Shown: positions 1,972 through 32,547 of the stretch, piece after piece
Numbering within the stretch: position 1 is the first letter of the stretch
Layout: each line of letters starts with the position of its first letter
Source: Sorghum bicolor
Taxonomy: Eukaryota; Streptophyta; Magnoliopsida; Poales; Poaceae
Reading direction: 5' to 3'
DNA length: 64,000 nt
Assembly: GCF_000003195.3 (NCBI RefSeq)
Contig: NC_012870.2
Coordinates: 15,244,501 to 15,308,500 of the forward strand
Translations under genes and position numbers: made by a program
Notes under the pieces: model-generated
Seen by the model: the letters and a program-made list of their open reading frames with translations, nothing else
Told to the model about the DNA's origin: nothing
Databases searched by the model: none

Positions 1972-4900
1972 ATGGATGGCTCCGCCTCCCCCTCCGCCGC
2001 CGCGGTCGAGACTGATACGCAGGGAGGAGAAGCTCCGTCCAAAGCCAAGCGAGGCAACGGTACGATCAACGGAAACTGATGCCGCACCTCACTCTGCTTC
2101 AGACTGTACTAGTAGTACCTTAGTTAGCTAGTGTTTACTCTTCCCTACATGAAAACGATGTCCTTCCTGAGATCTATAGTTACTGTGCTTTTTTTATAAG
2201 GATATTTGTAGTTCCCTTTTGAAAAACCCTGTTGTGATTATTACTGATTACCACTGCTGTTGTAACAATTTCATGACTGCTTCGGTTTCACCATAAGTTA
2301 CTTGATTTGTTGTAGGAATTGTCATTAAAGCTCTTGCCAGTAGCTTTTCAAAAAAATAATAATTATTATGAACTAGGTGTAAGGACTGCTGTTACAGTTC
2401 AAGCTTTCAACTAAATTGAACCTCACCCGTTCGAAACTGGTGTCATTATTTTGCTTAGTGTCAAGCATCTGCTTAATGTTAGATTTGTGATAACGATGCC
2501 TGCCATGCCTTATTCAGCCGAGGAGAAATATCAACATGGACAGCCGGTTTACTTTCCAGAGGAACTAGTGGACAATTGGGTTTCTTTTTCTCGTCATGGC
2601 TTGTATTATTGCTACAGCATCAACATCTCGTTGCAAGGGTCTTGCAACACAGCTGCTGATCCGACCAACATAATTTTAGCTGTCAAATGTGACATGGGAC
2701 CTGACTTTTTTTGGCACTCTTTTAACTCGGGTGGTATTGGAATTACCATTAAGTACTTGTGCAAGATCCATCTGAATCAAGAACAGGTAAATATGGAGTA
2801 ATGTTATCTTTTTTCTTAATCTCAGGTTCCTGTTTTTAGTTTCTTTTATCAATATGTTAGTATTTTAAGTGTGAGAGATCTTCTGCATTAATGTTGTGTA
2901 CAACATTTTTGCTTCTTCAGGTAATTTTTGCTAGAAGATTCCAGACAACGGTTCTTTCTTTGCTCATTAACAGTGACCATTTGGAGGTCAGTGATGCCAT
3001 AAAATACTTCCATGAACTGCAAGTAGATGTGGGGGTTGTCTATCTACTTCTGCCCACAGTGTATGGCAAAATCGATTGGTGCGGTATCAAGTTCTCAACT
3101 TCATCAGTATATGATGATGTGACTGATAAAAATACTAGACATTCCCATTCTTGTAAAGATGCTGATATACTGCAGACAATGGATGGTCCTTGCTGCAGAT
3201 GCATACTTCAGAATTCTGTTGTCTATGCCCCTTGTGATAAAAAAATTTATAATATTACAGAACTTGACTTAAATGCAAACCAACCTCTGGATTTGAACAA
3301 TAGGAGTGCTGTTAGCTGCAAAAGGTATTAAAGATTAGATTTATGTTTGTCCTTACATTTGTTATGTGCTCCTCTGAACGGTAGAATTTACATCCAAAAA
3401 CGGTATTCTTTTTGTATGCTCCGGATATGGCCTACATTTGACCTCTGAAAGCAAACCACTCTTGGTCGCCAGTGGATTATTCACAGTGCAAAACTTTCTC
3501 TACAAATGCTACGAAAAAAGAAAAGGTTGTTTTCTGTTAACAGTACTGAAATTTTTGCCTCTTGATATCTTGTTCTAACAGCATGTATAAATTCAACTAC
3601 TTTACGATGCTTAGTACTCCCCCATTTATTTTTATAAGGTGGGCACGAATTTTAAGATTCAAACCTTGTAATTTACAATCCGCAATTGGGCTTACAAGAT
3701 GTAAACTCCATTATACAAAAGTGATATCGTTGAATTAGTATTTGAAAAAACTACTTATGGTTATAATTTTGTTGCTAGAAACATTGTAGTATAAGAGGCA
3801 ATATAGGTCAAAGTATAACTTTGGAAACCACACCTAGGTAAACCGCACCTTATATTGAAAAATGGAGAGAGTAATTAGTAAAGCAAATTCCATGCATAGG
3901 AAAAGGTTTGCAATGTAATTTTCCACTCCCAAAAGACAGAGAGAATGAGGTTAATTAGAAGTTAGAGCTGTAGCCTGTGATCCTACTGCTGTTAATAGGC
4001 TATGTATGATGTTAACTTATCTTTTTTTCCTTTCTTCAGAACCTAGGAGTGTTAAGTTGCTGCCACCTGGACTCTGCAGAGTAGTCATGGCACCAGTGTC
4101 AGCAAATACTTTGTTCAGCTTCTCATTTGTACCTTCCATAATGTACCGTATCCAGTGTCTGCTTCTTTCTGCAAAGTTGAAAGTCCAGTTGGGCCCAAGA
4201 ATGCAACAGTTCAACATAACGGCTATGAAGGTTCTCTTTTTCTCAGCAGTTATTTACTCCACTAATAGCTGTAGTAGATGACTAGATACTAAGCTGATGA
4301 GCTTACAAGCTACAAACGTATTTCAGTTGCTCTTATTTTGAGAATAAAGAAGGCTTGCCAATTGGCAATGTTCATGCATTACTTTACTAGACCTAAAGAA
4401 CAGCAGTTTTTTTTGGATAAATAAATAGACGGCTTGCTTGTACTATGCTTCATTTGTAAACTAATAGCAACATGCTACTAACATTACGGTTTATTCCTTG
4501 GCTGATGCTTAAACTATTTCGTTTCGCTATGAATTTGAAGTTAGCAAGATGCATCATTCGCAGATTCTGGAAGCGCTTACAACAAAGGAATGCCAGGAGA
4601 AATTTTCACTGGAATCATTAGAAACACTTGGAGATTCTTTCCTTAAGTATGTTACAGGCCAAGATCTTTTTAGCAAATACACATATAGAGAGGACATGCT
4701 AACCTCTATGAGAGGAGAAAAGGTCTCCAACCCAGCTCTATGCCAGCTAGCCTGCAAAAGCGAAATTGTGGTACTGAAAGTTTTCTGATCTGCTTTGCAT
4801 GACTTTTTTCAACTTAGTACTGAAGTGTAATAGTTGGTTGAACTTTCTGAATGAAGTAGTTTGTGATTAAAATTGAACACTTACCATAGCCAAGGAGTCC

Positions 4901-7900
4901 TGAGTTTGGAACCTGGTTTGTTGCTTTATTTAATCAAAGAAGTCCAAATATCTCCCCCCTAAGTTTGGCCTATGTCCAGAGAACCCCTATACTAACATTT
5001 TGTTCGATTTACTCCCCCAACTACTACAGTTGGCCCAGTTTACCCTTTAACAAGGTTTTTTTTTTGTTTCTCCACGAACAAGGTAAGTCTAATTCAAATT
5101 TTGTGAGATGATAGCTTACATCATGTTTTATATTACAAGATATATATGACGAATTTTTCATTGTTATGCTTCGTACAATTTTATATCTCTAGTATTATTT
5201 TTTTACTAAATGTCCAAACCTATCAAAATAATGATGAAAATTTTTTATGTATTTTTTAACATAAATTATGATGTCATCTATCACTTCACAAAAATTGAAA
5301 TTTAGACTCAACTTGTACGCAGAGGGAAAAAAAATCTTGTTATGGGGTAAATTGGACCAACTGAAATTGCTGGGGGAGTAAATTGAACCAAACATGGGTT
5401 TAGGGTTATTCATAGGTCGGACTTGAGGGGAATAATTTGGACGTTTTCCTTTAATTCAATTCAAAAATAAAAGAATTATGTTCACTTTAAGTCATATTCC
5501 TAGTGATGAATGTTCACATTGTGGTTGAAATGACCTTGTCTAGAGCGGTCTTTTCATGGAAATGTTGCAGGAACTGTTATGCTTTCTGCAAAATTTCTGT
5601 GCTGCAAACAAGCATGCCAGCTAAAATCATTTTGTGAGCAGCATTTTCATGAGAGTCCTACTGGATATGTAGATTTTGTTTTTTTGTACATTACTTTGTT
5701 CTGAGTTTTAAAGATGTTTTTTTGATAATCCTGTTATCCACAATTTTTAACCATGTTATGCAATGAAACGCGGCCAAATGGACCAAAATTTCCCACCATT
5801 ATCCACAAATTACTCTACTCTTTGTAAGTACAGAGATAGAATCATTTTAGTTACTTTATCATCTCCTCAGCACTTAAATTAATTTATATGTTTACTTTCA
5901 GGTCTATATGACATTAATAGATTTTTTTTCCTTGTTTGGCAGGGATACATTCGAGGTGAATTGTTTAGCCCAAAAAAATGGACCATTCCAGGGCTCGGTT
6001 ATGACACACGTGGTAACAACAAAGTTTTGTTCCGAACAACCAATGATATGTACAGTCTGGATGAAATACCCATAAAAAGTAAGAGAATTGCTGATACAGT
6101 TGAAGCCTTGACTGGGGCCTACCTCAGTGCTTGTGGTGAACTGGCAGCAGTTCATTTCATCAAATCACTAGGAATGGATGTAGAACTGCATAGTAAAATG
6201 CAAGTTGAAAGGATTGTTTCAACAAAATCTGAGGAGTTCATTGACGTGGAAAGCTTGCAGACAATCATCGGTTATGTGTTTGATGACAGTTCACTGTTAA
6301 TAGAAGCATTGACACATAGTTCCTACAATACTGCTGGTATTACAACTTGCAATGAGGTTAATTTCAATGACTTAATGCACTTTGATCTTCAGTAGCAATC
6401 GTTTATTTGATTGCAAACAATTCTTTTTCAAAGTTAACAATGTTTTTGCAGTTGAGTAGTCTGCAGCATTGAGATGGGTAGTTCAATAGTTTTTCAGTTA
6501 ATCCAAAGGGCGTGAATATGTAACATAAAGACTAACCCAAGCCATGGAATGGACTACTAACTTTTAATACAATGAAAAATTGTTCTCCTGCGTGTTTGAG
6601 GGGGGAAAATAATGTTTTGCAGTTCTTTGGTGCACCCTTGACATGCAAGAACATAGACAAAATTATCTGTGCAGAATTACTAAAGGTGGCTAAATAATAC
6701 CAACAGCAATTGAGTCTAAAAATCTACCAATAGGATAGAATCAGAGAAGTACAAGGAAATGTGTGAAATATAATTTATTATTGTATTATCCTTTCATTAA
6801 CTTCTTTTAACACAAATGGTATTTTACCCCAGATGACTTTTTATGGGTGAACTTAACAAGTTTGTGCTCATGTGCAGAGGCTTGAATTTCTTGGAGATGC
6901 TGTATTGGACTACATCTTAACTGATTACTTTTACAGAAAGTACTACCCCAAGTGTACACCAGCACTATTGACAAATCTACGAAAAGCTTCTGTGAACAAC
7001 TGGTGCTATGCACATGCAGCTGTTAAAGCAGGGTTACACAAGCATATTCTCCATTCCTCATCAAAACAGATGATTAAAGATCTTGAGAGTTCAGGGCCGT
7101 TTTCAGGCCCATCACATGGTTGGGAACCTGGCATTGGTCTACCTGAGGTGTGTCTTTTTGAATGATCAGTTTTTCTAGGTTTCTTTAAAACACATGTTCC
7201 ATGCATTGCTAGGCCCATGAAAACACATGTGCCCCTTTTTTTGTTTGCATTGAACACATATACTTACCGTATTTTATATGGTTTTCTGTTTCATGTTTCT
7301 TGGATAAATTAGTTATTAGCTATAGATGTATGACTGAAACTGGCTGGCTTTCATTAGTCTTTGTTCTCTCGTACAGTATTATCATGTCTCATGGCAGACA
7401 ACTGCGGCTCTGCCAGTAACAAGGCAGATGGTTATGTACGGCTGAGGATGAATCTGGTTTAACATTTTTTTTTCTCGAAAAATCTGGTTTAACATTTGAA
7501 ATAGCAGCGTGAAATACGGATTAACCACACGCATGGCTTGGCTTCACCTGGTTTCCGCCTTTCTTTGTTTCTCAATAGGTGCTAATGTGCTACTGTATAT
7601 TCTATTTACTCTTCTGATCTTTTTTTCCCCATTTTCTTGGGTAACATGGGTCTGTTGCTTGTTGCGAAAATAAAACACAGGATCTCGCAGATTTATTTGA
7701 AGCAATAGCTGGTGCAATTTACGTCGACAGCGGGAATGACAAGGAGGCTGTCTGGAGAGCCATGAGGCGGCTACTGGTACCTCTTGCCACCCCGGAGACC
7801 ATTTTGCTTGACCCAGTGTCGGAGCTCAAAGAACTATGCGAGCACAAAAACTACCCTGAGCCATGGTACTCTCCAACTCGTGACGATGCAGCTGGAGTGA

Positions 7901-8034
7901 CAAGGGTGGTTGCAAAGGTGAAGGCTGCGGGGAGAGAATACTCTGACACTGGAGAAGGCCCCAACCAGGATGTGGCGGAAGTTTTCGCTGCAAAGGCTCT
8001 GCTCAAGAAACTGAAGGCCGCAGCAAGAGGATGA
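1972..8034 (+). CDS. Helicase-less Dicer-like 3 paralogue (PAZ remnant, RNase IIIa, RNase IIIb, dsRBD); possibly a pseudogene
   Basis: Spliced model: 1972-2059, 2518-2786, 2921-3324, 3452-3525, 4040-4230, 4564-4770, 5943-6356, 6878-7147, 7681-8034, giving about 756 aa with every join in phase. From exon 2 onward it matches exons 13-20 of the complete DCL3 copy at 16422-32547, with equal or near-equal exon sizes. The first 29 residues (MDGSASPSAAAVETD...) come from an unrelated exon. Helicase and dimerisation domains are absent. RNase IIIa acidic residues E362, D366, D462, E465 and RNase IIIb E552, D556, D643, E646 are present, and a C-terminal dsRBD follows (about 670-750). The fourth exon's canonical acceptor (3423-3424) reads GG instead of AG; I used the in-frame AG at 3450-3451. 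In-frame ATGs at 2496 and 2505, in the intron before exon 2, could be alternative starts. If expressed it could cut dsRNA without ATP-driven translocation. Pseudogene status cannot be excluded. Confidence 0.72.
3617..3871. mobile_element. Stowaway-like MITE in an intron of the truncated Dicer copy
   Basis: The left end CTCCCCCATTTATTTTTATAAGG pattern is matched by the complement of the right end (CTCTCTCCATTTTTCAATATAAGG pattern), with TA on both sides (3615-3616 and 3872-3873). CTCCCTCC-type ends and a TA duplication are the Stowaway (Tc1/mariner) signature. It lies between the exons ending at 3525 and starting at 4040. Confidence 0.65.
4938..5449. mobile_element. Long-TIR element, probably a Mutator-like MITE
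   Basis: About 140 bp at each end are inverted repeats of each other: left from AGAAGTCCAAATATCTCCCCC, right (complement) from GGAAAACGTCCAAATTATTCCC, and both continue through a shared TTTACTCCCCCA block. Flanks TTTAATCAA (4929-4937) and TTTAATTCA (5450-5458) match at 7 of 9 positions, compatible with an eroded 9-bp Mutator-type duplication. It lies in the intron between the RNase IIIa exons of the truncated Dicer copy. Confidence 0.55.
7468..7480 (-). mobile_element. Micro-insertion resembling a LINE 3' tail
   Basis: A 17-bp direct repeat beginning AATCTGGTTTAAC (7451-7467 and 7481-7497) brackets about 13 bases of the form TTTTTCTCGAAA. That is the complement of the CTCGAAAAA tails of grass LINE insertions. 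The repeat behaves like a target-site duplication around an almost completely 5'-truncated retroposition event. Confidence 0.5.
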
Positions 8035-16421: not shown

Positions 16422-19400
16422 ATGGCGGAAGAAGATCCGCTGCCGCCCTGCGACCCGCAGACGCAGGCGAGATGGTGAGTGCAGCGCCACCGCGCGCGCG
16501 CGCGCGCGCCCTGCCGCCGCTCGGCGATCGGCTCCTCGTCCGCCGCTCGCTCGCTCGCTCGCTCCTCCGTCCCGCTCCCGTCCTAATGTGGGTGCCCGCC
16601 CCCCGCACGCAGGTACCAGCTCGAGGCGCTGGAGCGCGCGCTGGCCGGGAACACGCTGGTGTTCCTCGAGACGGGCGCCGGGAAGACGCTCATCGCGGTG
16701 CTCCTCCTCCGCCGCTTCGCGAACCGCATCCGCTCGTCCCCGCCGCCCTGCTTCGCCGTCTTCCTCGTCCCCACCGTCGTGCTCGTGTCCCAGCAGGCGC
16801 GCGTCGTCCGGGCGCACACGGACCTCACCGTCGCCGAGTTCTTCGGCGAGATGGGCGTCGACTTCTGGAACGCGGACAAGTGGCGCGACATGGTCGACGG
16901 GGCCGAGGTGCTCGTCATGACGCCGCAGATCCTCCTCGACAACCTCCGCCACAGCTTCTTCAGGCTCCGGGACATCCCGCTCCTCATCTTCGACGAGTGC
17001 CACCACGCCACCGGGAATTCGCCCTACGCCTGCATTTTTAAGGTCACCCCGAAAGTTGGAACCACGCTTGGCTATTTTTGTCCCCCAACTGACCCTCTTG
17101 TCTGTTGGCATGCACATTTATTGATCTGGTTTCCACATATCGCAGTTCAGTTACAAATTTTAAGGCTTAAGTTTGCCCACGTGTATCAGTTCAGTATGTT
17201 TGTATGTGTATTGGGGTAGGAGTACAATTTTTGGTGGAATCATGAATGCTCTTTTTTGGGGGGTAAATTTCGGTTTCAGTTTGTCTTGGATTCTTTCCTT
17301 TTTTTAGAATGTATATCCAACAATCTAGTTAAATCTTTTATGTGTCTTTTTCTGGTAGGAGTTTTATCATCCCCAACTGAATTCTAGGCCATCAGATCCT
17401 ATTCCAAGGATATTTGGGATGACAGCTTCCCTAATTAATTCGAAAGGTAAGGTTGGGGACAATATTATTTGTATATTTATACGCCTTTAATTAATTAATT
17501 CAAAAGGTAAGGAGGCGGCAATATTATCTGTATATTTATTTATATGTGCATTTCATTCTCTCATTAATTAACTCCACTCTATTGTGGAATTTTGTCCACA
17601 GATCTTGCGCGTGACAAATATTCAATGAAAATATCTGAGCTCGAGAACCTCATGAATGCGAAGGTCAGGCTATATAAGAACACCCACACAACTGTATTTC
17701 AGATAATCATTATTATCCCTAATTTGTAACATGTGACAATAACTTATGCATTTCCCTTTATAGGTGTACACTGTTGCCAGCGAATCAGAGCTATTGCAAT
17801 ACATTCCATTTGCGACTACAAGGATAATCGAGTATGATGATTATATCGTAAAGTCTGAGTTATATAGCCATACTATCCGTTGCTTGGACAAATTGGAAGC
17901 GAAGGTACTATTATATACTCTAGGCATGGTCTTTTGCTGGACACAGATTGATTACGTTACTCTGCATCACCCAGTATGTAATGCAGGGATCGTTTTCTGT
18001 GCATTCTGCATTATGATATTGAAGTATATCATTGTAGACTGTAGAGTTGGAATCTTATGATTTAAGATACTACCATTCCCAGCAAAATTATCCAGTCTTG
18101 TTTTTGTAAACACATTTTCTGTTTGATGCTGAAATTGTTAAGAGTGCTACAACACTCTGTAAACAACATTAGTTTATTCTGGTTCTTAATTATAAATGGT
18201 AAGCATTATTACACCTTATATATCTGGTTCACAGTGTAAATGGTATCGTGAATAATTCTTGTAAGAATAACTAAGTATGACTGCTGAACTCAAATAGTTT
18301 AGCAGGAAGGGTAACACTACATACTGGTAAGGTGGTTTAATATTAGAGTGAAGTCCATTTGACCCCATGAACTTGTCATTGGGTTCAAAAAACCACTCTC
18401 AACTCAAAAACTAGAAATCCAGACAAATTACCCCATATAGCAGTTAAAAGTGTTTTTGAGTTATGTTGACATTTTTTTATTCAAAAACAAATCTGGAAAA
18501 CACTGGATAAGGTTCTTAATAAACCATGAAAAATGATAAGGATCTTAAGCCTCTTAAAAAACCCAAAAAGATCATAGAGATATATTAGGACAAGATATTT
18601 AGAGCTTTTGAATGTTTAAACATATTTTGAAAACTTTCCACACAAAAACATGAGTTGCAACCAGCTTTAAATGAACACAACTAGCACTATTGCGTGTTGC
18701 ATTCTTGCTAATTGCATCTCATATTTTTGTTGTGAAAAGTTTTCAAAATGTGTTTATACATCGCTTAGATTGTTCTGGGAATTTTCTCATTTTTATTGGA
18801 TGTTTTCCCCATTTTACTAGAGCTCAGTCCAATTTTAAAAGCTTTCAATTTCACTGGCTCCAAATATTTCATTTGGATGTATCTTGTCATAATATATCAC
18901 TTGGATTTTTTTCTTGGATGTTTCGGAGGCTTGAAGATATTTTTCGTGGTTTAAAACCTTATATAGTGTTTACCATATTTGTTTTTATTATAAACTAAAA
19001 AAGGACGATGTGGCTGAAAATCACCCTCAAAACTACTTTTAACTGATGTAGAAGTAATTTGTCCAGTTCTGAAAGTTGGAGGATGTAAGAGTTCTGTTTT
19101 TAGTTCAGGTGTTCTTTTTTTTTTTCAGATTCAACAAGTTTATGGGGTCGAATGGACTAAACTCTAAATATTTTTTAAAAACACTAAACTCTAAATATTA
19201 CAGGCATAATGCTCTTCGAAAGAAATCTGATTATGTTAGAAATATTCAAAGTAATACTCAACCTTGAAGGGGTGTTGAACAAATCTGTATTATTCTTTTG
19301 TTTTGTTATAAATGTGCAACTGTGCCACAATCACAATGTTACCATGGCTCCATATTTATATTCCAAAAAATGCAGTAGTTGTACTGATATCCATATTGCT

Positions 19401-22400
19401 TTCTTTATCTAGTTTTATGCTCACAATGGTGCAATGCAGCTTTTTAGTACATTTTAGTAACTTCTTTCATCATGTTCTGAGTTGATATGCATATGAAATA
19501 ACAGTGGTTGCATTATCTTAGCATTTAGAAATCCTGAAGGGCAAACTGCATGGTTCATATTTGGAAAATGCAGAGAAAAGGATTAAAAAATTAAATGCAA
19601 TGTTCTTATATTGCATATCTGATCTTGGAGTATGGCTGGCAGCAAAGGTACGAGGTTATGTAATGTGCACATTTTTATCATTCTTATGCACTCCTAAAAA
19701 TGCTTTAAAACCTTTTCTCAGGCTGCTGAGATTCTACAATCAAACAAGGAAAGCTGCGTATCCTTTTGGGGTGAAAAACTGGATGACGAAGTTGAGGGAT
19801 TCATTAGAAACTATATTGGTGACGTAAATAATGAACTGTCAGAAATTATATTGAAGATGACAAAGAGGGGTTTACAACGTAATTGCATCCTTCTTCCTTT
19901 CTTGTTTCTTCAATGCACCTCTTCCTAAAAGTTTTCACTTAATATAAATTACTCTGTGCAAGTTTTCTGCCAATGCTATTCAGTATTTTTTACTCAGTGC
20001 TGATAAGACTTTTCGTATCTATAACAACTAAGGTGTATGCCAATAGTAATCACTTTATCTATCCATTAAATAAAATACTAGACTCAACCACGGGGAGAAG
20101 ATGGCACTTCCCCCAACCTTTAGGCAGGGGCACACGACCTATGAACACCTGGGGTTTGAAGTTTGAACTGGGGTGGGCAGCCTCTCAACTGAAGGCTATT
20201 TGTCGATTTGACAATTTGCATTATTAGAGATGCATTTGGCCTTAGCGTGTGTTTGAATTATAACACTATCAAAAAATGTATGTGGTGCGGTTTATTTTTG
20301 CATTCTTCCAAACTAGATTTTGACTATTGTTTTCTTACATAAGAATATTGTTTATAGATATGTATGACTCTATTTATTTTTTCTTCTATTAATACAATGA
20401 TACGCAGCTCTCCTGCGTGTTCGAGAAAAAAAATTGTTTATAGCTACAAAATCAATATAGTGCAAAAGCATTTTTTTTGAATCTATTTATATGATATTTA
20501 TACCAAACGTACCTTGACTAAATATTGGTCAAAATAAACAGTTTGAATCTTCTTATAGCATGCAAACCCTACCTGATTATGTATGATCTCATATTTAATC
20601 TGTCTATACAGGGCATATTGGTGAGGACTTTGATGCGGATTTGCAAGATGGGTTATTGAAATCCAAAGTTTATTTTCTTATCAAATCTCTTTTGGAGTAT
20701 AGGTGAGAAAATGCTTGGATCTTAAGTATGTATAGTTTACTCTCATTGCCTTTGAAGTAGTGATTTGACTACAACACATGTCTAAATTATCTCGACACCC
20801 AAATCCTAAACCACAGTGCTCACCATACCTTCAAATCTAATTCAGCTAAAGTTGCCTATTCAAATAAATGTACGCTAGCTTATCCTATTGATCTGGTATA
20901 GTTTTATGAACTGAATGGCTAGCTGGATGATTACTGCCTTGCACATATCTTGATGTCATCATGGTCCATGCACTGCGGCTCTGCATATGGCCATATGGTA
21001 TAAATTGCTAATGAAATGATACGGCCAGCTGCAAATTATTCTCTCTTGTTGTAAACCATGAATGATTAATCTCCTGCTCCCTCTTGCAGGCATGTGCAAG
21101 ATTTGAGATGCATTGTTTTTGTTAAGAGAGTTATTACAAGCATTGTGTTGGAGGCTCTTCTGTCAACTATTAATCAAATGTCTGGATGGAGTGTAAGATA
21201 CATGGCAGGGAAAAATTTTGGTTTGCAATATCAGAGTAGGAATACGCATGTGGAAATTGTTGATTCATTTCGAAGTGGAAAGGTTTGCCACTAATGTTGC
21301 CCTGCAGTGGTCATGTCTTATTAATAATTGTACTGATGATAAAATGATATCCTGTAGGTGCACCTAATTATTGCCACACAAATTTTGGAGGAGGGACTGG
21401 ATGTGCCCAGTTGTAACTTGATAATCCGCTTTGATCAGGCAGCAACTGTATGCAGCTTTATACAATCACGGGGTCGAGCTAGGATGCAAAATTCTCACTA
21501 TGTTTTACTTATTAGAAGGCATGTTTTCCAGTTTTGTAGCTGTTGTTTCGTGAGCAATTTTTTTTTGTACTTTCAGCTTCATGAATTTCTTTTGGGTCCA
21601 CAGTAGACTTTGTAGGATCACACTTTTGGTCACTCACCGTGGACACTTGGTCCTTTTGTTGAGTAGAATGTGGATGGTGGTTGTCTTTTTGATGGCGTCC
21701 GTGACACGTCTGTTTTCTGTTTCGACGGGTGTGTTTGGGTTTGTTTGGGAGCAGACTCCAGCCTTTCCTTTGTACTTGGAGTAGGCACTTGCTTCTCCTT
21801 GTGCCTTTTCTCCTTAATTTTTTTCGAGAACGTGCGCTGCATGTATTTCATTAAGCAGAGAAATAGAGTTCACAACCCAAACAACACCCGGTAATCCAGA
21901 GATTACCGCAGAAACTTGGACCCAAACTCACACGCTAGCCTTTTCTCCTTAATGAAATGACATGCATATCTCTTGCATTGTAACAGAAAAAAAGTAGACT
22001 TTGTCAGATGGATTCCCCAATCACCAATTGAATTGCATGTATGGGATAAAGAACATGTAGTTTGTTGCATTTTTTTAGTGTAGGCACAACATTTCCTGTT
22101 GAATTGTATGTTGTGAATTGCTAAGTGCACATTTAGTCTCAGTGGATTAATCTGCATGCCAGTGCAACTGATGGTGATACGAGAAACAACGTGAAGGACC
22201 AACATTAGAAAAAAAACCTGTGTTTTGTTCATGGTGGTACTGTCTTCATATGTTTACAATCGTTAGAGATTTGAGATATTGTTCATGGTGGTTCTGTTGA
22301 TTTACTATATTCAGTTAAGGACCCTGTAATCTCACATTTGTTGTCAACATTGTGGTTCAACTTATTTGAGTGATATTGTTGGATTTTGCATATTGCTTTA

Positions 22401-25400
22401 CATGATCATTGAGTTTTTTCTATGCTTCTGTATCAGGGGGGACGCCAATGCTCTTTCTAAGACAGAGGAGTTTCTCGAAAGTGGACAAATCATGCGTGAA
22501 GAATCTCAGAGATTGGAATCTACTTTTTATCAGCCTCTTCCAAACACCCTATGCAATGAAGAATTTTATGGTGTTCAATCTACTGGAGCAATTGTTACTC
22601 TGAACTCTAGTGTTCAGTTGATTTACTTTTTCTGCTCAAAGCTACCTTCCGATGAGTCTGTTTTCTTTCTTAGATTAGACAATGTTTTCTTTTGGTTCAT
22701 ACAACAAAACATTTCCTGGTGCAAATACTAACAGTTTTTATCAACATATGCCAGGTATTTTAATCCTCTACCAAGATTCAATATTGACAAGGCATTAGGT
22801 ACATGTACGCTGCATCTTCCAATGAGCAGTCCCGTACAAACAATTTATGCTGAAGGAGAAATTTCTATCATCAAGAGGGTTGTTTGTCTTAACGCCTGTC
22901 GTGAATTACATGCTGTTGGTGCTCTCACAGATTATCTCTTACCCGAATCGAGTGTTCCATGCGAAGATGAACCTGACATTGGTATTCCTATTTATTTGTT
23001 ATAACAAAAAAATGAATCAAGACTTCATTTAATTGCAGTTATTATTTTTTTTTCATTGTGACTGCTTACATACGTTGGATACCATTTCCTTCAGTAATGA
23101 TATACTTGCAGTTTTATCTGAGTTATATTTGTACTATCCAAAGCTTCTAAACTCAACATACATATCTTAGGACTTTGGGCAATTGTGGAGGGTGGGATCA
23201 CACATAGGGCACGACTACAGTGAGTGGTGTAGGGCAGGGAGTGGTATGGCTTTAGAGAGACTATTATTTTAGCTAAGGTCATCTGATGCTTACAACAGCA
23301 AAATGGCTTATAGTGGGTATGCTGGATTCAGAGGAAACTTCATTTTGTAGGTTCAGCATAGAATGTTTGATCGGTTATGAATTTCCACATTTATCAATGT
23401 AACTGTTAAGTTTCAATTGCAATGTAGGGGTGAGTGATTAGAAATATCAAGTTTTGTGTATGGCTAGGATCCAAACAGTACCATTTTCTTGTCGGGAATT
23501 TTCATCCCTGCCTGAAATGTGTATGCTAGAAAGTCAAAAGTGTGCACACTCGTTTGATCCATGTTTTCAGTTGGGTAATCAGTTTGACATGCAATTGAAT
23601 CGGTATATTATACTAAGACTGTATTAACTCTGGTGATGTAGTTGTGGACAAATACAAGGAGGAGCAACCTGACTACTTTCCAGAACAATTAATGGATAAT
23701 TGGTTGTCTTTTTGTCATCGTGGCTTATATTATTGCTACAAGATCTCACTGGAAGGTTGTTCTGAAACAACTACTCCAGCTGAGATAGTATTAGCTGTAA
23801 AGTGTGATTTGGGATCTGACTTCATTTCAACCACATTCAAATTGTGGGGTGTGCAAGACTATTTGAGTTTTACCATAAGATATGTTGGTGTGATTCATCT
23901 AAATCAAGAACAGGTAGCTATTCTCTTCATATAATCTTGTTCTGTAGTCACCATACCATCCTTTCTTTTTCTCTTCCATAGATGAAAGTATTTTGGGCCC
24001 TTCATTATGAATACACCTCTCCTGCTCAGGTAATTGTCGCCAGAAGATTTCAGACAAGAATTCTTTCTTTGCTTATTAGTAAGGACCTTTCCGAAGACGG
24101 CAATTCTATTAAGAGTTTACTTGAAATGCAAGTATCTTCTGGAGCTGTGTATCTACTTCTGCCTGTAGTTTCTGGAAAAATTGATTGGTGCAGCATCAAA
24201 TTCTCATCCTCAGAAATGCATGAAGATACTATCATGGATAGTAGACACAGCCATTCTTGTAAAGATACTGGTTTGCTGCAGACAAAAGGTGGCCCTTTCT
24301 GCCCATGCATGCTTCAAAATTCTATTGTCTCCACCCCACATAATGGCATGCTCTATGCTGTTTCTGGGCTTCTTCTTGACTTGAATGCTAATTCGCCTAT
24401 GCGTGAGAGTGTTCTTAGCTACAAAACCCATTTTAAAGAAAGGTATAAGTTTTGTCTTTCCTTTGGTATTCTTTATGTCATGCTCCCATAAGCTGTAGAA
24501 ATAATCTTTATGTATCTTATTTCTTGTTTTACATTTTCCAGTCATGGCCTTGACTTAAAATGTGAAGATCAACCTCTCTTGCGTGCCAGTAAACTTGTGA
24601 AAGTGCGGAACATCCTCCATGAGCGCAACTATAAAAAAGAAAAAGGTTCCTTTCTTTTGAGAAGAGTATTTAAGGCATATCCATCGGGCTGCATATTATA
24701 CCATGTGCTGTATCAATTAGTTTGCGCTCAAATTCTGGGAGATGGAAAGACTGAAAACATGGGCTTGTGATTTTCCTAACTGTTTTCTCTTAGACGTGAG
24801 CCTCACATTTGCAAAAGCTAGCATAATTGACTTGTGGGACATGGGTCCATGAGTACATAATGATCTTTTGGGCGCATGTTGATTGTCTGGCAACATTGGC
24901 TACACGATAGAAGATGAAAGAGTTTCAAGTGTTAAAAAGATTTCCTTTTTTTTTCTGTCTTATATCTATGTTCTTAATACTGAGTTTATCTGTGGTTACT
25001 AACAAAACTACATATTTAATTAGTGGATTTACATTGTAAATATGAGTATGAGAGTATAGAACAAAACCTTTTTGTCACAGGCAGTGGCGGAGCTTGGACC
25101 TAAATCCAGCAGGGGCCACTAATTAAAGAATAAGGCTAATCTTTAGTTTTGTTCAAGCCAAATGGATGCAATTATATGGATTTTACATAAGTTCAGGGGT
25201 GGCCATGGCCCCTATTGGTCTATGAGAAGCCTCGCCACTGGTCACGGGTGCACATGTACCAAGGAGTAAGGGTTTGGGTGTTATAGTGTACTCAGGGTTT
25301 CTACTGTTCTCTCTTCTCTCTAATACAAAGATAGACAGCTCTCCTGCATAGTCAAGAGAAAAAAATACACTGACATCTTATAGCTGTTTCAGTTATGGAT

Positions 25401-28400
25401 ATGTGTCATATGAATTAAACTCACTTCTCCTTTTTGAAAACATTTTTTTCAGCAATGAATATTCTACTATATAGGTCTTAATAAAACTATAGTTGATTGG
25501 TTACTTATGAGACAGGATAAATGCCACACATTTCAGCTTTAAGTTCTCTTAGAAGCTTCTAGAATTCAATTCAATATCACAATGGTTGTATAGGTAGACA
25601 GTTCTATAGCAGAACTTGTTTAATGTGTACATGTATATTTCAAGTAACTGTAGTAGTTTGGAGGCTCGAATTTGTGGAAACTACATTTTTTTTGTCTTCA
25701 TTAGTGCATTATATATATTTTAAATTCATCGATGGTTTGCTCATAGGTACCATTTGTGTACAAAATTTCAAGAAACTACATTTGTCTCCTCTCAAGATTA
25801 TATAAACTGATCAAAGAATAAAGGAGATATGCCAATTTCATGTCCTTTTTCTACTGAGCATAGCTTAGCAAGCTTCTTAGAGTAAGGGAGTCAGAAGCTT
25901 CATACTTGCAGAAAGGCCTAATACCTGTTTGTTTGCCTCTCTGTTTTTGAGGGGTGGTTTTTGGCTGACCTGATAAGTTGGCAGTCTTTTTTTTTTTTTT
26001 GGGGGGGGGGGGGGACTTTTTGACTGAATTCTAATTGTGGGCCAGAATATCTCTAATATCCTCTACTAAAAAATTGGATGGTTCAATTTATATACAATTT
26101 TAAATTGAGTTTTTTATACTACTATAATTAAATAACTTGTTTGTTAAATGACTGATTCCATTATCCTGTTTCAGAAAGTACAAATGTGTTTGAATTGCCA
26201 CCCGAGCTCTGCATAGTTGTCATGGCGCCAGTGTCAGCAAATACCCTGCGCTGCTTCACATTTATTCCTTCTATAATGTATCGTATCCAATGTATGCTTC
26301 TTTCTGTGAATTTGAAAACGCAATTGGGTCCAAGCATGAAGCAGTTCGATATTCCAGCACTAAAGGTTAAATTCGATAGCAGTTTTTCTACTTTATGCAC
26401 ATCCATAATGTTTTAGAAAATGTAGCTGCTAAATCAGCTTGTTGTTCTCTAGATGCGAGAACAGAGCTATTGGTTTCCCATATACACTGTTTTATTAGTC
26501 TATTGCTTTGTTAAAATAAAGATTCTGTTCAGTTATTCTTCAGTTATTGCATCATGTGCATCGGTTCTTGTCATAATTTTTCTTCTCCGAAACAACTTGT
26601 CATTATGTTTCATTCCCTTGGGATGATTTTTCTATGAGTGCTTCCATTAGTTCAGATCCTGACTCTGCAAATAGGAGCTAGAAATTTATTGTTACTTAAA
26701 TATAATTTTACATTATATAAAAGTATTTTCATGACAAACCTAGGAATGTCGACCTTATCAAGTCAATCTATATGATTATTTAGCTATTGATGGTTGAATC
26801 TAAAAAGTTTTTGACATAAGAGATAAGAGTTTATAAGACGTTTTGACTTTTCTAGATTATAAGACGTTTTGACTTTTCTAGATACATTGCTTTTACTATG
26901 TTTTTAGACTATGTATATCTAAGTGAATAGAAAAATGTATCTAGAAAAGCCAAAACGTCTTGTAATTTGCAATGGAGGGAGTACTTATTTGGGATCAGAG
27001 TATCTTAAACTGATCAAGATGCAGGATATGCATGCTGCTTCATATTCTCTTCAGAAATTTTCAGTGAAATTATTTGTTGTCACCAGCGTGAATATTCTTC
27101 TATGCACATTGTCTGTACAAGGGTTCTCTTTTTTTTACTCATTCAATGGCTTGCAGGTTCTGGAAGCACTAACAGCAAAGAAATGCAAAGAAGAATTTTC
27201 GCAGGAATCATTAGAAACACTTGGAGATTCTTTCCTCAAGTATATTACAACTCAGCACCTCTTTAGCAAATACAAACATCAGCATGAAGGCATGCTAACC
27301 AAGATGAAGAAAAACTTGATCTCGAATGCTGCTTTATGCCAGCTGGCCTGCAGTAACAATCTTGTGGTACTCTTTCTTAATCTGATATTTTTTTCTTGTT
27401 TGGAATATAAGGTCCTCTTTGTTTACATGAGTTGGTCCTAGAATCGTCGATTTGAAAAATGGAATTTTCTGAATACAGCTGTTTGGATCAGCTTAGAACT
27501 TTAATTAGAAATGGAGTCTGATTGTATCACTTGAGAGCAACTCCCAATACCAAGCTCTAACCTTCTGAATAGCACTGACCACAGCTCATCAACTCCACCT
27601 AGTCTCTCCATGTACAACCAGACACCAGACAACTTCCATCTCCAGTGAGCTTGTAGAGAATTAGGGAAACACCTCACACCCAATTAGAGCTCCAGCAGTC
27701 TGGCCTTAAGCCAATGCTGGTGAAATTGCTAGTGAAAAACTAGACCTGCGGGGGTGTGTAAGACAGCCCTCGGGCATTTTGCTAAGAAGAAACCCCCGAA
27801 CCCCTACCCCACCCATACATAGCGGCACCGTAGCCCATGTGAGAACTACCACAATCAGGGCCGGACCTTATACCTGTACTTTAGCGTGGGGTGGGACTGA
27901 CGGGAGGATTTTTTAACCCTAGCCTAAAATTTGCTCCCACGGGGAGTCAAACCAAGGGTCTGAGGAGTGCTAATCAAGTCACCTAACCAACTCAGCTCAG
28001 CTAGAGGCCCTTTCGCGGTGAAATTGCTAGTGACATCCACTTTATTTGCCTCTGACAACTTTCTCCTTCCTCTTCGAGCACACACTGGTCCATATCCAAT
28101 CAATGCCACCACTGGCCATTGCTTCGTCCTTTTCACTGGCAGTGAGGCCCACACTGCTGTTGTTGACTGGAATTTTCCAGGGCCTGGGCTTTCGCTGCTG
28201 TTGTCAATTGTGGAATATTATTCCTCCTTTGGCGCTCAGACCAGGCAAAGGTGTGAGCGTGTGGCTTGGGGCCTGGGATCATGGAGCTGGCCATTCTTCC
28301 TGGCAGACAGACTTAGATTGTGTTAGAATAGGCGCCCTTTGGGCTGTTATCGGCCTAATGCCTTAGTGGTTAAGTTAGATTGATAAGGCAAGGATCACCG

Positions 28401-31400
28401 TTATCTGGGTGTTTCTATAAACCCTTAGGGGATCCTTGCCTATATATGTACTCTGTACTCTTGATTATCAATCTACTAATCTCGAGACCTATTGGCTCTC
28501 AGATTGCAAAACTTTGGTGACTTAGATTTCACAGCTTTGGTGTCGTTGCTCATGTATGTAAGCATGGGCGCATCTTTGATGCCCTTGCCTGCGGTACTGC
28601 TGCTCCCATACAGCATTGGGTCATGTGCATTGAGGTCTTTGGCTCTGAGCATGGACAAAAACAGTATGGCCTCATGGCTTGTCAAGCGCACATCTGGTCG
28701 CCCAACTGCACCAGATCCCAAGCCTTCACATCCTGCAAGGCTCATTTTTCATGCCGTCTTTCGAATGAAACAGTGTATGGAATGGATTTTATTCAGCGAT
28801 TTCCTCTATAACCAGACAGAAGAATTGAATTCAAGCCTGTTTTCATTTCCTCCTATATTCAATTTGGAGCCTCATTTGAATTCATCCAATCCAATTCAAC
28901 AAATTGAGCCTAATACTTTTTTAGTGTGTTAGGTTTTTGTTGATAATCATTGACCCCAGGTCCTCCTCCTGTATCCGTTATCCAAATATTCCTTCTAATC
29001 AAAATTGTTTAAAACACTGACATGGTCCCTAAAGTTGACTCCTTTTTGCACATTTGAGGTGTCTATAAGTTTCAAAGTTTTTGCATGCATGTATACATAA
29101 AAATCTTTTTGGCAACTCCATACACAATCGCCATTGACAACGACATGCTTACCAGTAGCCTGGTGATCAGTAAAGAGCTGATTGAAATATTAAAATCTGT
29201 TTAGATAATTCTTTACCAATCAGCCACTAACACAATGTGTCTCAGTGTTCTCTGTTAAAACTTGGTTGTATCATTTATTTGCATTTTCTTGTTGTACAGT
29301 GTGTTTATCTGTACCATTTCTGCATTTGTTGTGCCTTTTTCTTTGATTGCAGGGATACATTCGAAGCGAAACTTTCAACCCTGAAACGTGGATTATTCCA
29401 GGGGTTGGCAATGACTCATGTGGTAGGAGTCTGAGGAAGCTTAAAAGTAAGAGGATCGCAGATTCAGTTGAAGCCTTAATTGGGGCATATCTTAGTGCTG
29501 CTGGTGAGCAGGCAGCGTATCTTTTCTTAAAATCTTTAGGAATGGATATAGAGTTTCACAAAATGCCAGTTGAAAGGAAAATTACAATCAATGCGGAGAA
29601 CTTCATTAACCTTAGAAGTTTGGAGCTAATGCTTGACTATAATTTCAGTGATCCATCATTGTTGTTGGAAGCACTGACACATGGTTCATATCAGATTGCC
29701 GGCACTACTGCATGTTATCAGGTTGGTCTAGAAGCCACCAAACACCTCTCTGTTTCAGATTAGTTAATTTCTATCTATTTTCCCAAAGATCCCTGTCTAC
29801 TTCAGCGTAGAGGCTTACATCCAGTATTATCACAGTTGGGAGTATCTTTATCATTAATAATTACCTTGCATTCTATTATTCACTTACAAGTTACAACCTA
29901 GTTTCATGAGATGAAAATCACAGTGTTGTGGGGTACCCCAACCTCTAGGCCATTGAGAATACAAATATTCTATTGGTATATATATGGGTGATTTGTTAAA
30001 AGCATTATTGTCTTCAGGGGGAGTCTACCAAATGCCCCTGGATTTTATCATGTGTCTTGGGGCAGGATGGGACTCCTCTAGCACCCAAGCTCCTTCATTT
30101 TATCCACGAGGGCAAGAGCACCATTGCTTGTTCAGTCTCTTCACTTGTAACTTAATTCCCCTCTCTAGTTCGTGTAGTTTAAAGGGTAGGGTACAACCCT
30201 CTGTTTGACCTGTAAGGACAGCACAGAAAGCATAATCAAGGAAGTTTTGCAAGATAGTTTACTTAGGCTAGAAAGATAATTCATAGCCTCCTAACAGTGG
30301 ATGGAAAACACCAACAAACTTGAACTATATGTTCTGTGTATTCTAAGAGGACTAGTAAAAACAAGCTGAAAGCACGAGGTAATGAAATACACTATTGTGG
30401 ATCTCAATACGATGCTCAAGTTGAATTATGTTGAATCCTTTGTGGATGATGTAATATTTTAGGGTATCTAAACTGCTGTAAAAAAATGTGGAGTATGTGG
30501 TTTACACATGGTAAAGTTTTTCATCTTTGAGCATAACATCTGTAATGGGAGTGCATCCTGCGCATAGTTCTGCTGACTAAATATAATGGGAGAATACTTC
30601 ATGGGAGCACCAAATTTATAAAAAAAAACCAATATTTGTGTCACCAAATAATTATCATTAGGTTCATCATTAGATATGTTTTCATAGTATACTTATTTGG
30701 TGGCATAAATGTTAACAATCTTCTCTATAAGCTTGGTTAAACTTAAGCTAGTTTGGCAAGCTATAGTGACATGTTTTTTGGGGACAGAAATAATACTACA
30801 TTGGATGAGGTGAATAATAATCTTTTGTATTAAATGAATGCACAGGGCATCTTTTGTTGGCACAGTTCAATTTGTTTCTTGCAAAAGAGTATCTCAAAGA
30901 TACTGTTTTATTGTTTCCTATATTTCCACAGAAAAAGAATATTCCTCTTAGTGTGTTCTATCATCCATAATAAATTTGATACTATCAAAGTTTATACCAA
31001 GCAGCAGGTAACCATTATATTGAGTTACTTACAGCTTCATGCATTTATGCAGCGGCTCGAGTTTCTTGGAGATGCTGTATTAGATCATATTTTTACCGAT
31101 TATTTCTACCATCAGTACCCTGAATGCACTCCAGAACTGTTGACAGATCTGAGATCTGCTTCTGTGAACAATAGCTGCTATGCTCATGCAGCAGTTAAAG
31201 CAGGATTACATAAACATATTCTACATTCATCATCTGCACTGCACAAAAAGATGGCTGACTACCTCGACAAGTTTGAGCAGTCATTTTCAGGTCCATCACA
31301 TGGTTGGGAAGCTGGCATCTGTTTACCAAAGGTGCGTCTTATTTCCTTCTAGGTGCTAATGGTCTAATATTGTGCAACTTTTAGCACACTAATAGTGCAT

Positions 31401-32547
31401 TTTCAGTGCTCTGGTGCCATGTTTGGGAGGAAAACCTGGCCTCTAGCCTGAGTGGCAGTAACCACCTAGACTCCCTCAGTTATAGATTCTTTTCAGCTTT
31501 GACTAAATCCTTTCAGAACAGGCTGAAACACTAACGATTAAATGGTTAGTTCTTTACAGGACTACCAACTAAATCATATCATTAACCAGGAAACAATTTT
31601 GGTTATAACAAAACAGCTAACAAGTAGGGGCTGTTAGTGCCATAGTGGCTCATGTAGACCTGCTTTGTGAGTGAGGGTACGTGTGCTAACTTCATCCCAA
31701 ACCTCGTGCACGACCAAGGTTAAACTAGGGACGGCACTGTTAAAACAATGTCGGCCAGCAACATTGCAAGATAACAAGCAAGTTGAAACCCTTTCGTCCA
31801 GCTTTTTAACACGTCAGGTAGCCTTCCGCCACCAGGTCTACTTCTCATCTGGTTGTGGAGCGACACATCTGACCTAGGCAATCTTTTGACTATGTTTTGT
31901 GTTCATTCTAAAGCTGATTACCCCAACTAAAAAGAATATTTTGTTTCTTGAGAAGCCTTTGATCCAAACAAACATAAATAAAAAATATGCCCTAACATAG
32001 TAGAACACACTGTTGCATGTTCTCCATAGGTTGAGGGTAATAAATGTTAAACCACAAGGTAACATGGGGCAAATATTGATTAATGACACCCATCGTATTT
32101 CCTTTTTGGAGGAACATAGTAAATTTCAAGTACTCTGGGACCCTAATCGTTTGCTTATTTGCATACATGCAGGTTCTAGGTGACGTAATTGAGTCTATCG
32201 CTGGTGCAATCTACATTGATACCAAGAACGACAAAAAGGTTGTTTGGAGAAAGATGAAACGGCTACTAGAACCTCTTGCCACCCCCGACACTCTTGAAAT
32301 TGATCCTGTCAAAGAGCTGCATGAATTCTGTGATCCTAAAACGTGCAGTATCAAGTACACAGTAGCTCGTGAGGACCGGGTAACCTCGGTGGCCGTAGAA
32401 GTACAGACCAAAGGGACTACATACAAGGCCACTCGGACAGGCCTCACCAAGCGTGACGCCAAAAAGTTAGCAGCCAAATCCGTGCTCAAAGATATGAAGG
32501 CCGCGAATAGCACGCAGCATTTTGCAAATGGTATCAGCTGCACTTAA
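16422..32547 (+). CDS. DCL3: Dicer-like 3 ribonuclease, complete
   Basis: Twenty exons: 16422-16474, 16613-17042, 17359-17446, 17602-17663, 17764-17904, 19522-19647, 19722-19878, 20612-20702, 21090-21282, 21358-21518, 22437-22655, 22755-22981, 23642-23913, 24030-24442, 24542-24645, 26175-26365, 27157-27366, 29353-29721, 31053-31331, 32173-32547. They total 4161 bases (1386 aa) with all phases consistent. Domains: DExH helicase (GAGKT 39-43, DECH 145-148, QSRGRAR 483-489), Dicer dimerisation about 555-645, platform/PAZ about 740-912, RNase IIIa (E996, D1000, D1083, E1086), RNase IIIb (E1172, D1176, D1266, E1269), dsRBD about 1300-1370. The DCL3 family dices Pol IV/RDR2 dsRNA into 24-nt siRNAs in the nucleus. 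Exon content most resembles monocot DCL3 rather than DCL1, 2 or 4; DCL3a versus DCL3b/DCL5 is not resolved. It is somewhat shorter than the usual 1550-1650 aa. Intron 10 has a GC donor. Confidence 0.93.
16475..16612 (+). repeat. CG-rich and CGCT microsatellites in DCL3 intron 1
   Basis: The short first intron carries a GCGCGCGCGC run (about 16493-16508) and a (CGCT)n run (about 16541-16563). Both are low-complexity and probably variable between accessions. Confidence 0.7.
18345..19165. mobile_element. Inverted-repeat element in DCL3 intron 5
   Basis: The left end (AGAGTGAAGTCCATTTGACC...) is matched by the complement of the right end (AGAGTTTAGTCCATTCGACC...), and the similarity continues through an AACTTGT block. 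About 820 bp separate the ends and no coding frame lies between them. The architecture recalls the long-TIR element at 4938-5449. No convincing target duplication is visible. Confidence 0.5.
20358..20432 (+). mobile_element. 5'-truncated LINE insertion in DCL3 intron 7
   Basis: Seventy-five bases ending in TTCGAGAAAAAAA are bracketed by the 11-bp direct repeat ATTGTTTATAG (20347-20357 and 20433-20443). The body (AATACAATGATACGCAGCTC...) is the common 3' end of grass L1-type LINEs. The poly(A) tail on the + strand gives the orientation. Confidence 0.75.
21519..22436 (+). other. GC-AG intron (intron 10) of DCL3
   Basis: Joining AG at 21518 to GGGGGAC at 22437 restores the expected frame across the end of the helicase-C region. 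The donor dinucleotide is GC (AAG|GCATGT) and the acceptor is CAG. No nearby GT donor keeps the frame. GC-AG introns are a known minor class, and their weak donors are often alternatively spliced. Confidence 0.75.
21819..21937 (-). mobile_element. 5'-truncated LINE insertion in DCL3 intron 10
   Basis: A perfect 16-bp target duplication (GCCTTTTCTCCTTAAT at 21803-21818 and 21938-21953) flanks 119 bases. On the minus strand these end in CTCGAAAAAA after AATGAAATACATGCAGCG, the typical grass LINE 3' end. It lies inside the GC-AG intron. Confidence 0.8.
25082..25240. mobile_element. hAT MITE (159 bp) in DCL3 intron 15
   Basis: Starts CAGTGGCGGAGC and ends with the complementary type CTCGCCACTG. 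The 8-bp flanks GTCACAGG (25074-25081) and GTCACGGG (25241-25248) match at 7 of 8 positions. TIR sequence and duplication length fit non-autonomous hAT elements. Confidence 0.75.
25290..25370 (+). mobile_element. LINE 3'-tail remnant in DCL3 intron 15
   Basis: CTCTAATACAAAGATAGACAG followed by CTCTCCTGCATAGTC and a run of A repeats the motif order of the better-defined LINE insertion at 20358-20432. Boundaries are approximate and no target duplication was found. Confidence 0.5.
25987..26014. repeat. T14-G14 homopolymer junction in DCL3 intron 15
   Basis: Fourteen T are followed directly by fourteen G in the coding strand. Such a tract could form a G-quadruplex in RNA or DNA. Its exact length is likely to be uncertain in the assembly. 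Confidence 0.85.
26819..26981. mobile_element. Stowaway-like MITE remnant with a short tandem duplication
   Basis: The right end TTGCAATGGAGGGAG followed by TA and the matching left arm TATAAGACGTTTTGACTTTTC are Stowaway-type. The left arm occurs twice in tandem at about 26831-26882, and the extreme left terminus is missing. It lies in DCL3 intron 16. Confidence 0.55.
27737..28017 (-). mobile_element. tRNA-derived SINE in DCL3 intron 17
   Basis: A perfect 16-bp target duplication (GTGAAATTGCTAGTGA at 27721-27736 and 28018-28033) encloses 281 bases. On the minus strand the 5' part has RNA polymerase III promoter boxes (A-box-like TAGCTGAGCTGAGTTGG and B-box-like GGTTTGACTCCC), and the 3' end finishes in a T run, as in grass SINEs of the p-SINE/Au type. 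The insertion is antisense to DCL3. Confidence 0.88.
28321..28501. mobile_element. Short solo LTR (181 bp) in DCL3 intron 17
   Basis: Runs from TGTTAGAATAGG to GGCTCTCA with the perfect 5-bp duplication GATTG on both sides (28316-28320 and 28502-28506). It contains a TATA-like CCTATATATGTA. Its size fits a TRIM or a short Copia-type LTR. It lies about 290 bp from the SINE in the same intron. Confidence 0.8.
28507..29352. other. Unassigned remainder of DCL3 intron 17
   Basis: Contains an 89-codon open frame on the minus strand (28476-28745), partly overlapping the solo LTR, and an overlapping plus-strand frame. Neither shows a recognisable domain. It may be a decayed retroelement or captured sequence, but nothing specific can be assigned. 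Confidence 0.3.

What the first reader, a model, noticed from the sequence alone, without database searches (positions are those of the whole stretch)
1972..8034. Tandem DCL3 paralogue lacking helicase and dimerisation domains
The sequence shows two Dicer-like 3 genes in tandem. The upstream one starts at the equivalent of exon 13 of the complete copy and keeps PAZ-region, RNase IIIa, RNase IIIb and dsRBD exons in frame over about 756 aa. Plant Dicers normally carry an N-terminal helicase. A naturally helicase-less plant Dicer would resemble minimal Dicers of some protists and could process short or pre-unwound dsRNA, or compete with full-length DCL3 for RDR2 products. Function is inference; exon structure and frame are seen.
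Basis: partly seen in the sequence, partly recalled or inferred. Interest (0 to 1): 0.88.

Follow-up and report, generated by a model that had tools for sequence, protein, structure and literature searches.

The report
Conserved helicase-less DCL2 gene in grasses
Next to its normal Dicer-like 2 gene, sorghum carries a second, shortened Dicer gene without the RNA-unwinding half; relatives in other warm-season grasses keep its two cutting sites, so it looks like a real, overlooked RNA-cutting enzyme rather than a dead gene.

Summary
The anatomy is real, the name is wrong. Window 1972-8034 (+) holds a nine-exon gene, frame open over 756 codons (annotated as 778 aa, start 1906, SORBI_3001G179900), lacking helicase and Dicer_dimer. 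It matches exons 13-20 of the 20-exon gene at 16422-32547. Both are DCL2, not DCL3. The short gene is not a sorghum oddity: it belongs to one clade (18 rows, support 100/100) from four PACMAD grass subfamilies, 16 of the 18 with a similar new N-terminus, apparently beside full-length DCL2 in five species. All eight RNase III metal-binding acids are present in 19 of 24 rows; the other five are incomplete or exon-skipping models. dN/dS against DCL2 is about 0.3; platform, connector, dsRBD and the first part of RNase IIIb diverge no faster, or hardly faster, than in full-length DCL2. Best reading: a catalytically competent, ATP-independent dsRNA nuclease without a precise ruler, working like RTL1 beside DCL2/DCL4. 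Shortened DCL2 proteins also recur in other angiosperms, some perhaps partial models. Activity, sorghum expression and phenotype are untested.

The parts
1972..2059 (+). Short gene exon 1: new first exon, not similar to DCL2's (annotated start is the in-frame ATG at 1906); ends in phase 1
   Evidence: no DNA match of 1500-2500 to the downstream gene; similar N-terminus in 16 of 18 tree rows by eye
2518..2786 (+). Short gene exon 2 (= DCL2 exon 13), start of platform
2921..3324 (+). Short gene exon 3 (= DCL2 exon 14), platform to start of PAZ; ends earlier than DCL2's, without the THFKE stretch
3423..3424 (+). Position of DCL2's PAZ-exon acceptor: GG here where DCL2 has AG
   Evidence: sequence comparison
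3452..3525 (+). Short gene exon 4 (= rest of DCL2 exon 15), PAZ remnant entered through a shifted, frame-keeping acceptor
   Evidence: (P0001 uses it)
4040..4230 (+). Short gene exon 5 (= DCL2 exon 16), connector
4564..4770 (+). Short gene exon 6 (= DCL2 exon 17), first half of RNase IIIa with E362 and D366 (756-aa numbering); 207 nt, absent in annotated forms P0002 and P0003
5943..6356 (+). Short gene exon 7 (= DCL2 exon 18), second half of RNase IIIa with D462 and E465
6878..7147 (+). Short gene exon 8 (= DCL2 exon 19), RNase IIIb with E552 and D556
7681..8034 (+). Short gene exon 9 (= DCL2 exon 20), RNase IIIb with D643 and E646, dsRBD, stop
16422..32547 (+). Full-length DCL2 (SbDCL2, SORBI_3001G180000), 20 exons, 1386 aa in my model (annotated P0121 is 1352 aa): helicase, Dicer_dimer, PAZ, RNase IIIa/b; exon 10 ends in a GC donor

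Best explanation
The upstream gene is an old, retained paralogue of DCL2 that lacks helicase and DUF283 and has its own first exon (shown by anatomy, tree and conservation; I put about 0.9 on 'functional gene'). It encodes a Dicer core: platform, damaged PAZ, an RNase IIIa/IIIb pair with both catalytic centres intact, and a dsRBD. Inferred mechanism: without a helicase it cannot translocate on ATP, and without the PAZ helix it should not anchor a 3' overhang well, so it would cut dsRNA at unmeasured places as a distributive RNase III. It would then work like RTL1, destroying or pre-cutting viral or endogenous dsRNA before or beside DCL2 and DCL4. A spliced form lacking half of RNase IIIa would be a nicking or inactive dsRNA binder.
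Against: No enzyme assay and no sorghum expression value. The platform is as conserved as in DCL2, which hints that end binding may still matter. The first half of RNase IIIa is the most relaxed part (ratio 2.32; second half 1.36) and some annotated forms skip it. The sorghum dsRBD scores 21.4 bits, under Pfam's 23. The clade evolves faster than full-length DCL2 (mean crown-to-tip 0.30 over 18 rows vs 0.21 over 12). dS near 1 makes the dN/dS rough, and 29 of the 726 codons are exon 1, which is not homologous to DCL2.
Confidence: 0.5

Rival explanations
1. ATP-independent minimal Dicer: the platform still anchors a 5' phosphate, so the enzyme makes short siRNAs of roughly fixed size from short or already cut dsRNA, a plant counterpart of Giardia Dicer or mouse Dicer-O.
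Against: The PAZ helix stretch is missing in 17 of 24 rows and kept in 4; 3 rows do not cover it. No PAZ match in sorghum.
Confidence: 0.27
2. Regulator rather than nuclease: a dsRNA- or partner-binding decoy that dampens DCL2, above all in the form lacking half of RNase IIIa.
For: Annotated forms P0002, P0003 (sorghum) and P0006 (maize) lack the 69-aa exon with E362 and D366. That half-domain is relaxed (2.32). Tandem linkage to DCL2.
Against: Catalytic acids are kept wherever rows cover them except one position of a damaged Digitaria model. A full-length DCL2 model (P0041) also lacks that exon, so skipping may be annotation noise.
Confidence: 0.15
3. Pseudogene, or a relic with transcription but no function.
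For: Changed splice acceptor and eroded PAZ; faster evolution than full-length DCL2.
Against: No stop in 756 codons; neutral simulation stop-free in 8 of 500 runs at 0.05 and 0 of 500 at 0.1 substitutions per site; a clade across PACMAD grasses; sorghum end branch 0.075, not longer than maize 0.078.
Confidence: 0.05
4. The short models are annotation fragments of longer genes.
For: Several relatives are visibly incomplete (P0034, P0042, P0039).
Against: In the window no helicase-half match better than E 1.8 lies in 1-16400, while the complete copy has its own helicase exons after 16.4 kb. 16 of 18 tree rows share a similar new N-terminus.
Confidence: 0.03

Closest known systems
DCL2 (SbDCL2, the downstream gene)
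   Same: Nearest relative; same exon order from exon 13; two RNase III domains, platform, dsRBD
   Different: DCL2 has helicase, Dicer_dimer/DUF283 and PAZ; Pfam detects none of these in the sorghum short gene
RNASE THREE-LIKE 1 (RTL1, Arabidopsis)
   Same: Plant RNase III plus dsRBD without helicase; RTL1 cleaves long dsRNA before DCL2, DCL3 and DCL4 (PMC4687873, passages)
   Different: RTL1 orthologues were picked by one RNase III and one dsRBD; here two RNase III domains plus platform and connector, and DCL2 ancestry
Giardia Dicer
   Same: Two RNase III domains and no helicase base; the review calls it a 'minimal Dicer' (PMC10328071, passages)
   Different: Giardia Dicer has PAZ and lacks the dsRBD; the sorghum gene is the reverse, and arose by secondary loss
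Mouse oocyte Dicer-O
   Same: N-terminal truncation with a new promoter and first exon (PMC8069103, passages)
   Different: Dicer-O is an isoform of one gene from a retrotransposon promoter; here a separate paralogous gene shared by many genera; that the truncation reaches further is recalled

Membership tests
DCL2 lineage (by descent) | Groups with DCL2 rather than other plant Dicers | tested here: met
   Rows whose name gives a Dicer type say DCL2, apart from maize 'dicer-like 105' (another numbering); tree of grass and outgroup DCL2 places it among grass DCL2. DCL1/3/4 were not put in the tree.
Canonical Dicer (DCL) | DExD/H helicase with Helicase_C | tested here: not met
   No match in P0001; 0 of 14 members
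Canonical Dicer (DCL) | DUF283 / Dicer_dimer | tested here: not met
   No match in P0001; 0 of 14 members
Canonical Dicer (DCL) | PAZ domain | tested here: not met
   Not met in sorghum; 4 of 14 members match; maize P0006 only 11.8 bits, E 0.24
Canonical Dicer (DCL) | Two RNase III domains with catalytic acids | tested here: met
Canonical Dicer (DCL) | C-terminal dsRBD | tested here: inconclusive
   Sorghum 21.4 bits against cut-off 23; 12 of 14 members match at E 0.01; confident fold in the model
Canonical Dicer (DCL) | Makes small RNA of fixed length | not testable with these tools
   needs enzyme or small-RNA data
RTL1-type RNase III | A single RNase III domain and a single dsRBD | tested here: not met
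   Two RNase III stretches; criterion from PMC4687873 passages
RTL1-type RNase III | Cleaves long dsRNA without helicase or PAZ | not testable with these tools
   needs enzyme assay
Minimal Dicer (Giardia type) | Platform plus two RNase III domains, no helicase | tested here: met
   that residues 51-200 are the platform rests on the alignment to Dicer structures
Minimal Dicer (Giardia type) | Working PAZ that anchors the RNA end | tested here: inconclusive
   In sorghum no Pfam PAZ and no helix at the place of the Phragmites PAZ helix; RNA binding itself was not tested

The most novel reading that the evidence does not exclude
Flowering plants repeatedly make helicase-less DCL2 paralogues with almost the same breakpoint, and in PACMAD grasses one has become a long-lived separate enzyme class: an ATP-independent, ruler-less Dicer core that shreds dsRNA alongside DCL2, an extra layer of antiviral or dsRNA control that the Dicer inventories seen here leave out.
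Probability: 0.33. Interest if true: 0.82.

Novelty: new variant of a known kind. Interest (0 to 1): 0.63.

Why it matters
DCL2 makes 22-nt virus-derived siRNAs in plants (PMC3882329, passage). A conserved neighbour gene with the cutting core but no motor and, in most rows seen, a reduced end-binding domain is a natural test of what the Dicer helicase and PAZ are for, and it occurs in maize, sorghum and Setaria, where genetics is possible. Two gene inventories of which I saw passages, for sorghum and Saccharum, do not list it there: one states that only DCL3 has duplicates in sorghum, the other that no tandem DCL duplicates were seen (PMC3882329 and PMC7413343). Effects blamed on DCL2 in these crops may involve two genes. 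The shortened DCL2 proteins in other orders suggest a recurring evolutionary route, if they are complete genes.

Tried and rejected
DCL3/DCL5 identity: my own first guess from the sorghum chromosome-1 position was DCL5 (DCL3b). It was dropped when the protein search returned DCL2 and PMC3882329 placed SbDCL3b at 19.8 Mb. That the best structural match is a DCL3 structure does not argue for DCL3: none of the chains listed is named DCL2.

Dating the duplication: T+F together (PACMAD only) has support 79/95, while holding F with rice and pooid DCL2 is not rejected (p-AU 0.537), so a split at or before the PACMAD/BOP divergence stays open. Among the 120 rows listed of 626 I saw no helicase-less row of this type from Oryzoideae or Pooideae; Zizania P0029 is short but keeps Dicer_dimer, and Aegilops P0049 (483 aa) is a fragment that was left out of the main tree. 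Loss or absence there is not proven.

Rows left out of the main tree: 12 of 59 aligned rows, partial or duplicate models. The domain comparison used 5 of the 8 species I had listed in the script. Origin of exon 1 and a genome-wide copy count were not obtained, because the whole-genome search did not complete. Rfam and promoter scans were not run. Paper searches that gave no paper: (gene identifiers). That I found no report of this gene rests only on paper searches in open-licence papers, most of whose hits I saw as listings only; the MBE 2013 Dicer evolution paper that I recalled was not held.

Full report
WHAT IS THERE. The window lies on contig C1 at 15,244,501-15,308,500 of a 709-Mb genome; the database protein identical to the upstream gene is labelled Sorghum bicolor. 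Two Dicer-type genes stand in tandem on the + strand. The upstream gene has nine exons from 1972 to 8034, GT-AG introns and a 756-codon open frame. The annotated protein P0001 (778 aa) is the same with an in-frame start at 1906; P0002 bears the locus name SORBI_3001G179900. The downstream gene has 20 exons (16422-32547, 1386 aa; one GC donor at exon 10) and matches SORBI_3001G180000, whose annotated protein P0121 is 34 aa shorter. Short-gene exons 2-9 correspond to full-length exons 13-20; the stretches that blastn aligns are 67-79% identical. The helicase half of the full-length protein has no match better than E 1.8 in window 1-16400.

WHICH DICER. It is not DCL3. Among the listed hits (120 of 128, 120 of 992), names that give a Dicer type say DCL2 or Dicer homolog 2, apart from maize 'dicer-like 105'. 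By sequence P0121 scores higher against Arabidopsis DCL1 and a DCL4 chain (686 and 622 bits) than against DCL3 (465 bits), with no DCL2 among the 60 of 72 chains shown. PMC3882329 (passages) lists SbDCL2 at chr1 15.28 Mb with 1385 aa, SbDCL3b at 19.8 Mb and SbDCL3a on chr3, and says that only DCL3 has duplicates in sorghum, so the short gene was not counted.

DOMAINS. Sorghum P0001: Ribonuclease_3 124.8 bits with two stretches; dsrm 21.4 bits (cut-off 23); no PAZ, helicase or Dicer_dimer. P0121 has DEAD, Helicase_C, Dicer_dimer, PAZ (33.4) and RNase III. Over 14 members of the short clade: RNase III 14, dsrm 12, PAZ 4, helicase and Dicer_dimer 0.

THE PAZ. In the full-length gene the end of exon 14 and exon 15 encode SYKTHFKESHGLDLKCEDQPLL; in Arabidopsis DCL1 the aligned stretch is TYADYYKQKYGVDLNCKQQPLI. 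In sorghum's short gene the exon ends earlier, the acceptor AG of the full-length gene reads GG (3423-3424), and the protein runs from SCK to SKPLL through a later acceptor at 3452 that keeps the frame. Annotated P0003 shows an alternative, CKRYGLHLTSESKPLL, still without the THFKE stretch. Of 24 short-clade rows (some from one species), 4 (Aristida, Eleusine, Eragrostis, Phragmites P0016) keep the stretch, 17 lack it and 3 do not cover it. Pfam's four PAZ matches are not the same four: P0016, P0025 and P0035 match, and Stipagrostis P0014 carries a precomputed PAZ though it lacks the stretch. The AlphaFold model of P0016 (mean pLDDT 80.8, pTM 0.82) has a helix at 228-236, which is YKTHFKTRH; the sorghum model (75.9, pTM 0.76) has no helix there and pLDDT under 50 at 260-275. 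That this helix carries aromatic residues of the 3'-overhang pocket is recalled from work on human Dicer; PMC10328071 (passages) supports that PAZ has specificity for the 2-nt 3' overhang.

AGE AND SPREAD. In a tree of 47 rows and 763 columns the helicase-less proteins (18 rows) form one clade with support 100/100, PACMAD full-length DCL2 (12 rows) another with 100/95. Members come from Panicoideae, Chloridoideae, Arundinoideae and Aristidoideae (one species each looked up; the rest recalled). Whether the split predates the BOP lineage is open. Adjacent locus numbers suggest that the tandem is kept in Panicum virgatum (9KG468200/468300), P. hallii (9G175800/175900), Paspalum notatum (009852/009853) and Eragrostis curvula (50575/50576), besides sorghum, where the window shows it (names). 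Stipagrostis and Aristida numbers are not adjacent. A similar N-terminal stretch before YQH (MDGSASPSAAA...GN in sorghum, Miscanthus and maize) is seen by eye in 16 of the 18 rows; Phragmites P0016 and Aristida P0025 begin differently.

SELECTION. Short versus full-length sorghum gene: 726 codons, dN 0.294, dS 0.997, ratio 0.295, including 29 exon-1 codons that are not homologous. From each clade's crown, mean tip distance is 0.30 (short, 18 rows) and 0.21 (full, 12 rows); Sorghum-Miscanthus distances are 0.143 and 0.118. Over 10 pairs of five species the divergence ratio short/full is platform 1.02, PAZ 1.74 with many gaps, connector 0.67, IIIa first part 2.32 and second part 1.36, IIIb first part 1.17 and second part 1.65, dsRBD 1.05. 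The gene is held by selection, somewhat relaxed, mostly in PAZ and the first part of IIIa.

TRANSCRIPTION. P0023 (483 aa on an 1848-base contig, 49 member sequences, maize-like) and P0043 (423 aa on a 1724-base contig) run through the exon 5-9 junctions in one reading frame, so they come from spliced RNA unless they are retrocopies. Their source tags (lgn, jgi) I take to be read assemblies; that is inference. Isoform names X2, X3 and X5 point to RNA-based NCBI models (recalled). No sorghum read was seen.

HOW IT LIKELY WORKS. Shown: a conserved core with both cutting sites, no motor, and in sorghum a reduced PAZ. Inferred: ATP-independent cutting of dsRNA without fixed length. RTL1 is the nearest working precedent: it cleaves long near-perfect dsRNA before DCL2, DCL3 and DCL4 and is induced by viruses (PMC4687873, passages). 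A helicase-truncated Dicer can also be more active on dsRNA (mouse Dicer-O, PMC8069103, passages), which keeps the minimal-Dicer rival alive.

A WIDER PATTERN. I inspected 25 other short DCL2-like proteins: 21 begin at DCL2 residues 602-679 without a helicase piece (Persea, Tasmannia, Magnolia, Castanea, Juglans, Carya, Prunus, Pyrus, Gossypium, Actinidia and others), P0068 and P0077 keep a helicase fragment, P0095 and P0212 begin later. In a quick tree of 60 rows (27 short, 33 long or partial-long) the label needs 15 changes, 14 of them forced by starred branches; Juglans+Carya, two Prunus and three Pyrus rows form small clades of their own. Some are probably incomplete models, so this is a lead: helicase loss from DCL2 copies may recur.

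VERDICT. A real, conserved, overlooked variant of DCL2. New variant of a known kind; interest 0.63.

Noticed in passing
Related proteins P0056-P0101, P0175, P0209: Helicase-less DCL2-like proteins with a similar breakpoint occur in magnoliids, Fagales, Rosaceae, Malvaceae and others and scatter over the DCL2 tree, suggesting repeated origins or many partial gene models.
   Followed up: partly
window 4564-4770: The 207-nt exon with half of the RNase IIIa site is absent in two sorghum forms and one maize form; a full-length Panicum DCL2 model (P0041) lacks the same exon.
   Followed up: partly
window 29353-29721: Full-length DCL2 of Sorghum, Miscanthus, Zea and Digitaria lacks a stretch between the RNase IIIa halves that the sorghum short gene still has.
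   Followed up: no
window 1-221, 8544-8782, 9197-9378, 11893-12136, 15279-15521, 33541-33761: A family of short interspersed repeats in both orientations, similar to MITEs by eye, flanks and separates the two Dicer genes.
   Followed up: no
window 57739-58731 (+): Open frame with a MADS-box (SRF-TF, E 3.8e-19); likely type I, by recall.
   Followed up: no
window 21519-21520: Intron 10 of full-length DCL2 begins with GC instead of GT in the model that keeps the conserved reading.
   Followed up: no
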